From NCBI GenBank assembly GCA_026182355.1, contig JAPFBL010001049.1, positions 26,533-90,532 on the forward strand: DNA of 64,000 nucleotides, given 5' to 3'. The notes under the pieces are model-generated. The model had not been told where the DNA came from and made no database searches. It worked only from the letters and a program-made list of their open reading frames with translations. Positions 3,713 to 63,720 of this stretch are shown here, piece by piece. This DNA is from Hermatobates lingyangjiaoensis. Taxonomy: Eukaryota; Arthropoda; Insecta; Hemiptera; Hermatobatidae. Both the position numbers and the translations under genes were made by a program. How positions within the stretch are numbered: the stretch's first letter is position 1; each line of letters opens with the position of its first letter.

Positions 3713-3916
3713 AGATTTCACATAAACACGTGAAACAACAATCAACGATCAAACCACAATAAGAAATGGGAAAACAAGACTAAGATCTTTCAACCGTAAC
3801 AAGCGGTCTTCGTCAGAAGTTCAGTTGGGTTTTTGACTCTGACGAAGACCGCTTGTTACGGTTGAAAGATCTTAGTCTTGTTTTCCCATTTCTTATTGTG
3901 GTTTAATCATTGACTA
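3713..3916. mobile_element. Penelope-like element (PLE) terminal palindrome, family 1
   Basis: Two head-to-head copies of a PLE terminal sequence: CACATAAACACGTGAAA, CAACCGTAACAAGCGGTCTTCG, a short central spacer, then the reverse complement back to CCACAATAAG-type sequence, with (TA)n on both sides. The same family recurs more than a dozen times in this window. It carries the hammerhead-like core given separately. Palindromic, 5'-truncated copies fit twin-primed reverse transcription of PLEs. Confidence 0.75.
3835..3877 (+). ncRNA. Hammerhead-ribozyme-like motif, PLE family 1
   Basis: Order seen: GACT (stem I), CTGACGA (core), one extra A, GACCG/CGGTT stem II with loop CTTGTTA, GAA, the self-complementary AGATCT, T (cleavage position 17), AGTC (pairs with GACT). 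A self-complementary stem III is the arrangement known for hammerheads that work as dimers, which are reported in Penelope-like elements. The inverted copy at 3782-3816 has lost the outer part. Activity has not been tested. Confidence 0.7.
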
Positions 3917-3932
3917 TATATATATATATAAG

Positions 3933-4131
3933 AGAGAGTTACACTAAAAGTAACGGGTTAATTGCCGTTACGTCTACAACGTGCTTGGTATCCCTTTCTC
4001 TTTTCTCTTGAAGACAGATTACCCGAAAATTTGAGTCTGCAAGTGTGTTTCCTTATTCTGTGTGTTACTCTTCTTGAATTTTGAACTCGTATTGTGTCCA
4101 GTTTGGTTTTGTGTTTCGTTTACTTAAGTAA
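3933..4131 (+). mobile_element. PLE terminal sequence, family 4
   Basis: The sequence runs TTGCCGTTACG, CAACGTGCTTGGT, CTTGAAGACAGATTACCCGAAAATTTGAGTCTG, then GTGTGTTTCC and CGTATTGTGTCCAGTTTGG; the long stretch is shown here only up to its core words. It matches the copies at 8155-8340 and 17930-18180. The core is slightly decayed (CTTGAAGACAG instead of CTGAAGACGG). (TA)n flanks both sides. Confidence 0.65.
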
Positions 4132-4209
4132 TATATATATATATAGATTATTTACCACAATGAAAATAATTTTTGAAACAATGCTCTAAGGCCTTTCGTT
4201 AACACACAC

Positions 4210-4271
<62 letters not shown>

Positions 4272-4344
4272 TTCAATATACATAAACATAAATTAAAAAT
4301 AAGACATTCAATGAAACATATATATATATATATACAAGATTTAC
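4132..4344. repeat. (TA)n and (CA)n microsatellites around the 3' tail of an endonuclease-type PLE
   Basis: Around 4146-4200 lies the minus-strand tail GCTCTAAGGCCTTTCGTT, which also ends the endonuclease-bearing PLE at 58.7 kb. The rest is TA and CA repeats with AT-rich filler. Confidence 0.7.
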
Positions 4345-4462
4345 ATATCAGTTGGGTTTTTGACTCTGACGAAGACAGCTTGTTAGGGTTCAAAGATCTT
4401 AGTCTTTTTGTTCCATGTTCATATATATGTATGTATTTTAAACTTCTCGCTTTTAAATACAT

Positions 4463-4528
<66 letters not shown>

Positions 4529-4650
4529 GCCGCTCAAATATATAATTTGACCGAAACGTTGGCAATTAGAGTTTAATTTGAACCAAGAACTGACCGAGTC
4601 CAAGAAATACTTTAGTTTTGTTTCTATTCCACGGTCCATACTTTTATTAA
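4345..4650. mobile_element. PLE family 1 and family 2 fragments separated by (GA)n
   Basis: Bases 4345-4420 hold half of a family 1 end (TTTTTGACTCTGACGAAGAC). Bases 4461-4527 are (GA)n. Bases 4540-4650 hold a family 2 end (CCGAAACGTTGGCAAT, GAACTGACCGAGTCC, TTTGTTTCTATTCCACGGTC). Confidence 0.7.
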
Positions 4651-5483
4651 TACTAGCTGATCTACCCGGCTTTACCCGGGAAACAATTTAATTTCAACTC
4701 TAATAATAAATTACATATAACGAAAACAATTTAAATTTTCTATAGTTTCGTTACACTTAATTTTTTTGAGATAAACGAAATTAATACAGAATTAAAATTA
4801 TAGATTACTCAAAAAATATATAATCTAACAGTGATTATAAATTTCACACATTGTCTAATATTATTAGAAGTTGATAGATTAGATTAACAAATAATAAAAA
4901 GCATATTTTTTGCCGAACAATACATCAAGAAATTTGAAAGAAGTCTAAGCTCATTAAATGTGATATGTCTTATCTGTTAAATATGATACGAATTTTAAAT
5001 CCCCAAATCGTTTCAATTAGGAACCAGTTAGTTGAAGAGACTAAACCATATCACATTACATTTCATTCAATGATTTCATTTTGAAGACTTCACACAGTTT
5101 TAAATGTCCAATTAAAATTATATCAGTAAACAAAATTGTCTCTTAAAAGTTTGAATAACAATATTTTGATGAAATATTATTTGTTTATGAAGAAGCATTG
5201 TATCGAAAAAATAATTGAACAAAGCATGTGGAAATATTATCACAAAGAATAACCTACCTGCGGTTGCCATTACCAATTAAAGTCAAAATGTAAACAAACA
5301 GGTTATACAGCAAACCTTATCTATTATAGGGCCCTAGGCGACATGGGTTAGGCTGCCTTCCAGAGTTTAATAGCCTAAAACCACCCCAAGACCTATAGAA
5401 AGTGCCTTGCAAAAGAATTTTTGAAAAAGGTCCATTGTAGGCCGAATGCATAAGGTACAAACATACATACATACATACAGAGC
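4651..5483 (+). mobile_element. Probable non-LTR (RTE-like) or non-autonomous element
   Basis: It begins with CTAGCTGATCTACCCGGCTT, a start I associate with a widespread class of invertebrate interspersed repeats, and ends in a (CATA)n tail, which is typical of RTE-type 3' ends. In between is about 800 bases of AT-rich sequence without an open frame, then a more complex block (GGGCCCTAGGCGACATGGG, GGCCGAATGCATAAGGTAC). The class assignment comes from memory of these end motifs and needs a library search. Confidence 0.45.
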
Positions 5484-6075
5484 CACGAAGAGAATTTATA
5501 TATAAATTTATATAATTTGGGATATTAAATATGGGTTTCTATGAGGATATATTATATATTAGAAAGGACATATATTAATTATAGAAGTGACATATCAAAT
5601 TTAAATATTATTTATTCGGGTATGTTAAATTAAACATTGTTGATAGATGAAAAATTGTGTTATTGTCTTTTTGGTTGTCTTCTTTGGTTATTTTAGTTCA
5701 GTGAACGTGTTCATTCAGACTACAGTTGTTGTTAAAATCCACATACTATTTTTCTTTGTAAAATAATTTGTAATGTAATACTTAGTTTTTCTGTTTCAAA
5801 ATTTATACTTCTGTAAGTTTTCTCACTAACCTATAAGTCAAAAAATTTCTATTGTAATTTCTTAATTGTAACTAATTGCACTTTTATGTATGTTTTGTTT
5901 TTTGAATGATTGTATTATTTCTTAGATTTCCTCTGTTTTTGTAGGCCTATGAAAAAGGTTTAAATAAACATCGAAACGTTGGCAATGAGAGTTTAATTTG
6001 AACCTGAAGAACTGATCGTGTCCCGATAAACATTAGTTTTGTTTCTATTCAATGGTCGATACTTTAATTAATATA
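5484..6075 (+). mobile_element. PLE 3' region, family 2
   Basis: AT-rich sequence leads to GTAGGCCTATGAAAAAGG, CATCGAAACGTTGGCAATG, GAACCTGAAGAACTGA and CCCGATAAACATTAG, followed by (TA)n. It matches the ends at 28.7 and 8.9 kb, including the bases before the end (ATTTGTAATGTAATACTTAG). In this family the hammerhead core is decayed to CTATGAA. Confidence 0.65.
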
Positions 6076-6112
6076 TATATATATATAATAATTAATTAAT
6101 ATATATATATAT

Positions 6113-62070: not shown

Positions 62071-62101
<31 letters not shown>

Positions 62102-62131
62102 ATATATATATATTGATATATATATTGATAT
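61803..62131. mobile_element. PLE family 1 partial palindrome and TATG/TACA microsatellite
   Basis: Family 1 minus arm at 61803-61925, with a very short plus arm to 61973. Then TA, TGTA and CATA repeats to 62131; the frames reported through it on both strands are translations of the repeat. Confidence 0.75.
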
Positions 62132-62830
62132 ATATATCGGCATATCTTTAAACAAGGACTGTATGGAATGACAAACAAAGACATGCCTTCATTTATGAAA
62201 AAGTTGGACGTTTCTGTTGTGTTCAGTAATGATGGTAACTTGTTTAACAGACTTGTCAATAATAAGCCAAAAAGAAAGGACTGTTGTGTATACAGGATAC
62301 CATGTACTGACTGTGAAATGTCTTACATTGGACAGACGAGCAAAGGTCTTCTTACAAGGATAAAACAGCACAAATATTCGATCAGAAGAGAAGACGAAAA
62401 GAGTGCCTTGTTCATGCACATAAGAGACAGTAATCATGTGATTAACTGGAATGAAGCAAATGAATTAATATATGTGTCTTCAGAAAGAAGAAGAAATATT
62501 GTGGAAATTGTGCTCATAAAGAACTTTTACGAGAAATTAATGAACAATAGCCTAGGACTCTACAAATTAGATGAAGTTTTGATCCAATAATTATACGGAT
62601 CAAATTACGGATAAAATGCAGAATAATTAAACAGATGAAGACTTCTTCATCGTTAAACACATTCAGGGTTACCAACAATTCTAGAAACTTCAATGAACCA
62701 GGTTAACATGTATTTATTATTTTTTTAGTCCACTTGCTCTCTGACTATGTGTTGACGAAAGGCCTTAGAGCATTGTTTCCAAATTAGTTTCATTGTGGTA
62801 AATGAATTCTTCTATTACATCAAGTGTTAT
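62132..62830 (+). pseudogene. Second PLE endonuclease fragment, 5'-truncated with inverted start
   Basis: The plus frame 62168-62590 reads KDMPSFMKKLDVSVVFSND, then CCVYRIPCTDC, YIGQTSKGLLTRIKQH, LFMHIRDSNHVINW and RRNIVEIVLI: a GIY-YIG domain clearly diverged from the 58-kb copy. At 62132-62190 the minus strand encodes VIPYSPCLKDMP, so the element start is inverted on itself, as in the 57-58-kb copy. The 3' tail holds GCTCTCTGACTATGTG, ACGAAAGGCCTTAGAGC (62736-62771), where the core G is changed (CTGACTA). The open frame ends early (LIQ) relative to the other copy. A fragment. Confidence 0.88.
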
Positions 62831-62844
62831 TTTGATTATTATTG

Positions 62845-62869
<25 letters not shown>

Positions 62870-62892
<23 letters not shown>

Positions 62893-63039
62893 GATTCGTT
62901 GCGATGTTGACCAATGGAAGTGGAGTTTACAGGTCCGTGCGTAAGGTCCCAGTTGCCCGCTGCTTAACAAAAAGCCAACATTGGTCAACATCGCAACGAA
63001 TCATATTCCTTTCCCCGGACAACTCATAGAAAACTTATA

Positions 63040-63040
<1 letters not shown>
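62870..63040. mobile_element. Family 12 terminal-repeat foldback in (TA)n
   Basis: Minus part GATTCGTTGCGATGTTGACC to CTGCTTAAC, then plus part ATTGGTCAACATCGCAACG to CCGGACAACTCATAG: a short head-to-head pair. CGTTGCGATG differs from the 26-kb copies (CGATGCGATG). Confidence 0.7.
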
Positions 63041-63077
<37 letters not shown>

Positions 63078-63439
63078 ATCTATATAATTCTAGTAGACCC
63101 CTACATAGATCCCTATTAATTCTTACTTTAATTCAACTATCTTATTTTAATACATTTTCTTCTCCTTTAATAATCTTTATTCTTCATTTACTTTAATATT
63201 CTTAATCTATTTATTACCTAATTAGTCCAATTATACCATTGACCTTTCAACTGTTTTATTCTAACCGCTTTGTTTCTAGCTCATTATTGACCTTTGACCT
63301 TCTCTTTATATTAACCTGTACTAATCCTTTTAATCTATTTATAGCAATGACTAAGCATGAGTCATCGATTTTAATTTAACATGTCACTTGGCCCAACTCC
63401 TTGGTGATCACCAACCTTAAGGTAAGAGACTCCTTGGCC
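63041..63439. other. (TA)n and unassigned AT-rich DNA
   Basis: No gene or known element between 63075 and 63439. Confidence 0.5.
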
Positions 63440-63720
63440 ATGTACCAATGCCAGAACCAGTGCGCTTGGTTTCCCTCTCTTATCTCTCCTGAAGACGGTT
63501 TAATCCGAAAATTACAGACTGTAAGTTAAACAGTAAAACGATCCAAAAGGACAACAAACGTTTCACGATGAATCACAAACACAGAACTAAGTAACAAACA
63601 CACTTACTGTCTCTAATTTTCGGTGGAACCGTCATTAGGAGAGTTGAGAAAGGGACACCAAGCGCACTTGTGAATCGACGGTTGGAGACCAGCAGTGTTG
63701 TCACACGCGTGCCCGGTTCA
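63440..63720. mobile_element. PLE family 3 palindrome between two related subfamilies
   Basis: Plus end 63457-63525 (AGTGCGCTTGGTTTCCCTC, CTCCTGAAGACGGTTTAATC, CGAAAATTACAGAC), then a minus end 63530-63715 of the 46.6-kb subtype (CAAACGTTTCACGATGAATC, GGTGGAACCGTCATTAGGAG) that ends with CACGCGTGCCCGGTTC. The two arms come from different subfamilies, so this is a junction of two insertions rather than one twin-primed copy. Confidence 0.6.

What the first reader, a model, noticed from the sequence alone, without database searches (positions are those of the whole stretch)
3713..63720. Ten or more PLE families share a complete dimer-type hammerhead formula
Seen: independent terminal families contain CTGANGA, one unpaired base, a variable stem II, GAA, a self-complementary block beginning with A and ending with T, and then the cleavage base. 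The block differs by family: AGATCT (family 1), AATT (3, 4), ATAT (5, 6, 7), ACGCGT (9), ACATGT (12), AGGCCT (endonuclease PLE), AGCT (17.1 kb). Stem II also changes with both strands matched (GACCG/CGGTC, GAACAC/GTGTTC, GGTT/AACC). Such covariation argues for selection on RNA structure. Known: hammerheads, often working as dimers with a palindromic stem III, are reported in Penelope-like elements. So the principle is known; the diversity packed in one locus is the notable part.
Basis: partly seen in the sequence, partly recalled or inferred. Interest (0 to 1): 0.85.

Follow-up and report, generated by a model that had tools for sequence, protein, structure and literature searches.

The report
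Hammerhead ribozymes in Penelope transposon ends
This stretch of probably insect DNA is littered with the ends of Penelope-like jumping genes, many of which carry a tiny RNA-cutting ribozyme of a type already described for these elements; the locus is rich but mostly ordinary.

Summary
A strict descriptor (CTGANGA, stem II, GAA, self-complementary A...T block, H) finds 47 sites against 0.05-0.085 expected; 29 remain without the second copy of a 16.3-kb duplication. Seven families have the full motif; an eighth (AGGCCT) has a 2-bp stem II. "Ten or more complete, independent families" is overstated: several are relatives, and stem I is missing at two sites. Rfam gave no hammerhead among the matches listed, but a covariance model from six window copies recovers a held-out family.

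The sites sit in short Penelope-like element (PLE) ends, mostly beside (TA)n, often as head-to-head inverted pairs. Exactly one arm carries the optional PLE 3' "tail" in 17 of 18 scored pairs (10 of these clear-cut). Only the AGGCCT family is joined to a PLE ORF.

Minimal, dimer-type hammerheads in PLEs are in print, so this is a new member of a known kind. The ATAT and AATT blocks are too weak to pair unaided, so dimers there would need help. The one-tail rule in separately formed pairs is the most useful extra. Cleavage was not tested.

The parts
3713..3914 (.). Family A (AGATCT) head-to-head inverted pair A1; hammerheads 3776-3820 minus and 3835-3879 plus; left arm tailed, right arm not
18985..19196 (.). 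Family A pair A2; hammerheads 19048-19092 minus, 19118-19162 plus; left arm tailed
19205..19460 (.). Family A pair A3 next to A2; hammerheads 19288-19332 minus (changed core), 19362-19408 plus; left arm tailed, right end altered
20233..20444 (.). Family A pair A4; hammerheads 20267-20311 minus, 20337-20381 plus; right arm tailed
22558..22715 (.). Family A pair A5; hammerhead 22616-22660 plus; left arm cut inside the AGATCT block, right arm tailed
46769..46970 (.). Family A pair A7; hammerhead 46890-46934 plus; left arm tailed
55332..55547 (.). Family A pair A9; hammerhead 55442-55486 plus; right arm tailed
61806..61974 (.). Family A pair A10; hammerhead 61870-61914 minus; left arm tailed, right arm cut inside the block
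23103..23147 (+). Family A hammerhead in a single-arm, tailed copy
45371..45414 (-). Family A hammerhead in a single-arm, untailed copy
12487..12640 (-). Family B (ATAT) single-arm tailed copy; hammerhead 12568-12611
21804..22091 (.). Family B head-to-head pair; hammerheads 21849-21892 minus, 21967-22010 plus; right arm tailed
22211..22364 (+). Family B single-arm tailed copy; hammerhead 22240-22283
16522..16672 (-). Family C (ATAT) unit; hammerhead 16575-16614
21608..21763 (-). Family C unit; hammerhead 21664-21703
53455..53608 (-). Family C unit; hammerhead 53511-53550
61393..61542 (-). Family C unit; hammerhead 61445-61484
6437..6469 (-). Family D (AATT) hammerhead
11011..11044 (-). Family D hammerhead, left arm of a pair with 11075-11223, inserted in an older PLE reverse transcriptase fragment
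19836..19869 (-). Family D hammerhead in copy 19748-19922
56903..56936 (-). Family D hammerhead in copy 56815-57007
14749..14788 (+). Family E (ACGCGT) hammerhead; stem I does not pair
14903..14942 (-). Family E' (ACGCGT) hammerhead, related to E; stem I 3 bp
27873..27912 (+). Family F (ACATGT) hammerhead-like site inside a 2.4-kb palindrome; stem I does not pair; its mirror copy (26648 minus) is degenerate
17104..17150 (-). Family G (AGCT) hammerhead; TATTTAA 33 nt upstream of the core, (TA)5 164 nt downstream
57649..58656 (+). 5'-truncated PLE ORF with a GIY-YIG domain
58682..58714 (+). Family H (AGGCCT) hammerhead, core 29 nt after the stop codon of that ORF; stem II 2 bp, stem I 7 bp
57074..57735 (-). 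Inverted copy of the H element's 3' end (99.4% to 58100-58760), hammerhead 57120-57152, with a longer 3' tail by eye
29016..45348 (+). Second copy of the duplication of 12720-29006; holds 18 of the 47 strict sites

Best explanation
These are remnants and short non-autonomous copies of several Penelope-like elements, made mostly of the 3' part of the PLE pseudo-LTR: a minimal type I hammerhead without a closed stem III, then a tail region where reverse transcription starts. Proposed mechanism: a PLE protein cuts AT-rich DNA, here mostly (TA)n, and reverse-transcribes the RNA from one of two start sites that flank a tail hairpin; often both cut strands are extended, which leaves a head-to-head inverted pair with the hammerheads facing outward. 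The hammerhead would cleave after H17, with stem III formed from the self-complementary block of a second RNA copy and/or with help of the PLE protein. Shown here: the motif, its maintained structure, the (TA)n flanks, the inverted pairs, the one-tail rule, the ORF link for H. Inferred: cleavage, dimers, protein help, both-strand priming, mobilisation in trans.
For: 47 sites versus 0.05-0.085. Palindrome after GAA in 46 of 53 versus 6.9%. Stem II covariation. A covariance model from A, B, E, E', F, G finds held-out family C at E 5.9e-5 to 1.3e-4 (0.005 for the copy at 20104) and I at 0.008-0.099. GIY-YIG ORF directly before H. (TA)5 within 220 nt downstream of the core at 25 of 30 sites versus 40% of random positions (the 30 are 28 of the 29 non-duplicate strict sites plus two H sites). 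Exactly one tailed arm in 17 of 18 A, B and D pairs, none with two. Inversion junctions differ among A pairs, and tailed arms are no closer to one another than to untailed ones (0.085, 0.077, 0.081). Published PLE anatomy agrees: head-to-head inverted pLTRs with an optional 31-bp tail on one of them (passages); AT-rich cleavage, extension of both strands, two adjacent start sites (parts 1-2 of 4 read).
Against: Only H is joined to a PLE ORF. Stem I fails in E and F. The model finds family D only once, at E 0.94, H at 0.16, N at 0.37. ATAT and AATT blocks are unstable as free duplexes. In 5 of the 17 one-tail pairs (A3, A8, D3, D6, D7) the other arm ends short of the common end, and in two more (D2?, D4) its end is weakly matched, so only 10 are clear; pair D2? 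may not be one insertion. One J pair (19544 minus / 19669 plus) has two tails by eye. A read-through transcript of an inverted pair would fold into a long hairpin that competes with the ribozyme. The host genome could not be searched.
Confidence: 0.88

Rival explanations
1. Animal non-LTR retrozymes: small direct tandem repeats with type I hammerheads that spread through circular RNAs.
For: Same ribozyme type and partly overlapping unit sizes (roughly 90-190 nt here). One two-copy tandem exists: two A inverted pairs with period 244 (35283-35740, and by sequence 18970-19460), and B has two same-strand copies 273 nt apart.
Against: Retrozymes are described as tandem repeats of about 150-400 nt with loop I-loop II contacts. 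Here most copies are single or inverted, and the ends show the PLE tail next to (TA)n.
Confidence: 0.05
2. Palindromic DNA transposons (MITEs) that happen to carry a hammerhead-like sequence.
For: Long inverted repeats beside TA.
Against: The two ends differ by a tail in 17 of 18 scored pairs, junctions and truncations vary, and single-arm copies exist.
Confidence: 0.03
3. Chance motif matches multiplied by repeats: real for some families, chance for single-copy ones such as F and E.
For: Stem I fails in E and F; F's mirror copy is degenerate.
Against: Fewer than 0.1 sites are expected per 64 kb; E' shares E's motif with a paired stem I.
Confidence: 0.04

Closest known systems
Minimal / small type I hammerheads of Penelope-like retrotransposons, proposed to cleave as dimers (Cervera and de la Pena 2014; Lunse, Weinberg and Breaker 2017)
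   Same: Core, missing helix III, PLE association and proposed dimer, as told in reviews (passages). The two primary papers were seen only as citations and were not held.
   Different: Here one unpaired base precedes stem II in 46 of 46 palindromic sites; whether the published variants share it I could not read. Most copies here are single or inverted, while the reviews stress tandem copies.
Poseidon PLE of Anolis carolinensis (PAc), PMC11167929 (parts 1-2 of 4 read)
   Same: Hammerhead with stems I and II near the pLTR-ORF junction; AT-rich target; two adjacent start sites flanking the tail; both strands cut and extended.
   Different: PAc start sites lie inside the ORF start; no ORF is joined to A-F here. 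In PAc in vitro no strand difference in start site was seen; here each scored pair has at most one tailed arm.
Penelope elements of Adineta vaga, PMC3846280 (passages)
   Same: Inverted pLTRs, head-to-head, palindromic junctions, a 31-bp tail optionally on one of the inverted pLTRs.
   Different: Those flank an ORF or captured gene; here many inserts are bare inverted ends without an ORF.
Animal non-LTR retrozymes, PMC7229834 (part 1 of 6 and passages)
   Same: Small non-autonomous units with type I hammerheads.
   Different: Tandem direct repeats with helix III and loop contacts there; single or inverted units without helix III here.

Membership tests
Minimal type I hammerhead of PLEs | Core CUGANGA ... 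GAA, A...U block ends, H17 | tested here: met
   47 strict sites, 0.05-0.085 expected
Minimal type I hammerhead of PLEs | Stem II | tested here: met
   2-6 bp in A-H; covariation on six
Minimal type I hammerhead of PLEs | Stem I | tested here: inconclusive
   contiguous pairs A 4, B 2, C 2, D 4, E 0, E' 3, F 0, G 3, H 7
Minimal type I hammerhead of PLEs | No closed stem III; self-complementary block | tested here: met
   46 of 53 versus 6.9% background
Minimal type I hammerhead of PLEs | Self-cleavage as dimer | not testable with these tools
   only duplex energies computed
Minimal type I hammerhead of PLEs | Lies in a PLE | tested here: inconclusive
   met for H; for the rest inferred from tails, inverted pairs and flanks
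Rfam Hammerhead families | Match at gathering score | tested here: not met
   0 matches in the window; none among the 150 listed of 186 at E up to 10; none in short stretches with G and B
Penelope-like element | ORF with RT and GIY-YIG endonuclease | tested here: met
   only for H (57649-58656; relatives carry RT) and the fragment 62129-62590; an RT fragment at 10324-10994 is not joined to a hammerhead of its own
Penelope-like element | Inverted head-to-head ends with optional tail on one | tested here: met
   17 of 18 scored pairs with exactly one tail
Penelope-like element | AT-rich target | tested here: met
   25 of 30 sites versus 40% of random positions
Penelope-like element | Direct pLTR-ORF-pLTR arrangement | tested here: inconclusive
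   not seen; the only ORF-bearing copy, H, is truncated with an inverted second end; truncated published copies look like this too
Non-LTR retrozyme | Direct tandem repeats of the hammerhead unit | tested here: inconclusive
   one two-copy tandem of A pairs; otherwise single or inverted copies
MITE | Symmetric terminal inverted repeats | tested here: not met
   ends differ by a tail in 17 of 18 scored pairs

The most novel reading that the evidence does not exclude
The self-complementary block is not only for cleavage: it holds two PLE RNAs together in a dimeric enzyme so that one RNA is copied from each cut strand, one from the distal and one from the proximal start site, giving the head-to-head insert with exactly one tail. 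The hammerhead would then be an integration device that pairs templates. Against it: pairing does not follow block strength; family D with the weak AATT block is mostly paired while family C with the weak ATAT block is unpaired in its 6 copies outside the duplicate.
Probability: 0.08. Interest if true: 0.75.

Novelty: new member of a known kind. Interest (0 to 1): 0.32.

Why it matters
[quoted passage not shown] One window with many copies of several families gives clean insertion footprints: at most one tailed arm per inverted pair, with junctions that differ, constrains how PLEs integrate and can be tested in the existing in vitro PLE system. It also shows that Rfam annotation passes over this class here.

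Tried and rejected
Rfam at gathering score and at E up to 10: no hammerhead among the matches listed (150 of 186 shown); the many miRNA matches fall on inverted repeats and were not followed. MAFFT on nine families misplaced C and D, so the covariance model was built from six sequences. Arm test in family A: arms of one insertion are slightly closer than randomly paired arms (0.067 versus 0.080, p 0.015; 10 of 11 pairs, A8 dropped because its right arm is too short), but the copies form a star and equal age alone could do this, so it does not prove one template per pair. Tail test: the 99.5% null score was inflated because random pieces hit real copies, so I read the two-peaked scores instead (35 or more versus 22 or less); A6 scores on neither arm; one further pair, D2?, has other DNA between its arms. 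Pairs of H, I, J and K were read by eye only. Copies that begin exactly at the cut, which would speak for cleavage in vivo: two A arms begin inside the AGATCT block, none was seen exactly at the cut (families A only). Family J (GAT in place of GAA) was not counted as a hammerhead. A mollusc host, my first guess from the style of the repeats, was dropped.
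Full report
What is there. A strict descriptor (CTGANGA, stem II of at least 3 bp with an optional unpaired first base, GAA, a self-complementary A...T block of 4, 6 or 8 nt, then A, C or T) finds 47 sites on the two strands; simulated sequence gives 0.05 to 0.085, the reversed window 0, and 179 permuted cores 0.05 on average, with 7 for the highest. A 16.3-kb stretch is duplicated (12720-29006 and 29016-45348, 98.9%), so 18 sites are second copies and 29 remain: 13 of family A, 4 each of B, C and D, and one each of E, E', F and G (my tally of the list). 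H (57148 minus and 58686 plus) follows the formula with a 2-bp stem II.

Is the block real? Searching for core, stem II and GAA alone gives 53 sites, of which 46 have a palindrome next; after any GAA the rate is 190 of 2771. The 7 without one are changed copies of A (2), B (1) and D (1), K (2, one in the duplicate) and L (1). In 46 of 46 the register with one unpaired base gives the longer stem, though both registers were allowed. On six sequences stem II is paired in 30 of 30 cells with double changes at 3 of 5 pairs; sliding the partner by 1 to 3 columns gives 7 to 40% paired; two of the five shuffle measures are not unusual (45 and 233 of 500). A covariance model from A, B, E, E', F and G finds family C, left out of it, at E 5.9e-5 to 1.3e-4 (0.005 for 20104), I at 0.008 to 0.099, M at 0.034, H at 0.16, N at 0.37 and of D one copy at 0.94. 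Rfam gives none in the window at gathering score, none among the 150 shown of 186 at E up to 10, and none in short stretches with G and B; that its models need a closed stem III is recalled.

How independent are the families? In an all-against-all comparison B, C, D, D2, I and M are relatives (E 1.6e-4 to 2e-17), E and E' also (7e-9); A matches C weakly (1e-4); F, G and H have no match better than E 0.02. So there are five or six unrelated sets. The change of stem II and of the block inside one set (AATT in D, ATAT in B, C, I, M) is better evidence for selection than a comparison of unrelated families.

Setting. The AGGCCT hammerhead starts 29 nt after the stop of a truncated ORF with a GIY-YIG domain whose relatives carry RT and PF26215 domains; an inverted copy of the same 3' end lies at 57074-57735. 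Units of A to D are roughly 90-190 nt; 9 of 9 listed B copies begin at one point (3 of them in the duplicate); ends lie mostly next to (TA)n. (TA)5 lies within 220 nt downstream of 25 of 30 cores (28 of the 29 non-duplicate strict sites, 19366 left out by oversight, plus two of H) versus 40% of random positions. TATTTAA or TATAWA lies 33 nt (G), 34 nt (F) and 49 nt (E) before the core; A, B, D, E', H, I, K and N have none within 80 nt, C and M have ones that may be (TA)n. GTRAGT follows the cut by 3 to 7 nt in B, C, D, I and M and by 26 nt in H, not in the other seven; as a splice donor this is a guess, its chance rate was not tested.

Inverted pairs and tails. Many copies are head-to-head pairs with the hammerheads facing outward. 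One arm runs past a common 3' end by some 28-37 nt, a stretch that can form a hairpin by eye; the other stops there. Scored against tails taken from unpaired copies, 17 of 18 A, B and D pairs have exactly one tailed arm, one (A6) none, none both. In 10 of the 17 the other arm clearly reaches the common end (A1, A2, A4, A5, A7, A9, A10, A11, B1, D1); in A3, A8, D3, D6 and D7 it is cut short or changed, and in D2? and D4 weakly matched. By eye H, I, K and three of four J pairs agree and one J pair has two tails. Junctions and truncations differ from one A pair to the next and tailed arms are no closer to each other than to untailed ones, so pairs seem to form anew. A tail on one of the inverted pLTRs is described for Adineta, and start at two sites on an AT-rich target with extension of both strands for Anolis, where no difference in start site between strands was seen in vitro. 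Here the two come together in counted form.

How it may work. The predicted monomer folds of A, D, G and H contain stems I and II, with some extra pairs in the core; those of B, C, E, E' and F do not contain both. Stem III needs a second copy. Block duplexes are worth -9.1 (H), -7.5 (E, E'), -5.0 (A), -4.6 (F), -2.5 (G), but +1.6 (B, C) and +2.2 (D) kcal/mol, so three families could dimerise only with help. In Anolis the hammerhead cleaved only with the protein present, and its loss did not stop insertion in vitro. I rate dimeric or protein-assisted cleavage as likely but unproven, and mobilisation by a PLE as well supported.

Host. An M17 peptidase ORF at 890-2602 has its highest identity among named relatives in mirid bugs (66%, Apolygus; an unnamed protein also 66%), while the best E-value goes to a longer cockroach protein at 51% (best 120 of 4041 listed). 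The host is probably an insect, perhaps a true bug; its genome could not be searched.

Known or new. Review passages state that all available PLE sequences show minimal hammerheads, that many metazoan genomes hold thousands, perhaps cleaving as dimers, and that a coral holds more than 6000 type I motifs, minimal or canonical, in 16 families. The finding is a rich new example. A search for Penelope, hammerhead and Hemiptera together gave one paper, on delta-like agents (listing only); this covers only the open papers held.

Noticed in passing
12720-29006 and 29016-45348: 16.3-kb tandem segmental duplication at 98.9% identity; doubles many of the sites.
   Followed up: partly
26085-28442 (and 42428-44784): 2.4-kb palindrome (94.9%) made of about 550-bp units in both orientations, holding family F.
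   Followed up: no
890-2602: Open reading frame for an M17 leucyl aminopeptidase; a 46-bp tandem array of about 16 copies begins at its stop codon.
   Followed up: partly
13103, 13195, 13272, 19544, 19669, 23551, 23658, 28685: Family J: core CTGAAGA with GAT in place of GAA and a small hairpin next, in PLE-like inverted pairs with short and long 3' ends; perhaps a decayed or variant hammerhead.
   Followed up: partly
15817 minus / 15942 plus: Family K: CTGAAGA core and a 6-bp stem II (plus arm) but no palindrome; inverted pair with unequal ends.
   Followed up: no
21921-21938: Short GTT-repeat filler between the two arms of the B inverted pair, as if by slippage at the RNA 5' end.
   Followed up: no
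3713-3741 and 57050-57085: Tails of families A and H share TCACGTGTT followed closely by GTGA, perhaps a common start-site hairpin.
   Followed up: no
50101-50652 and 51252-51564: Two tandem arrays of a 132-133-bp unit that seem to lie in opposite orientation, by eye.
   Followed up: no
63454-63689: Degenerate D copies facing inward, the reverse of the usual outward pairs.
   Followed up: no
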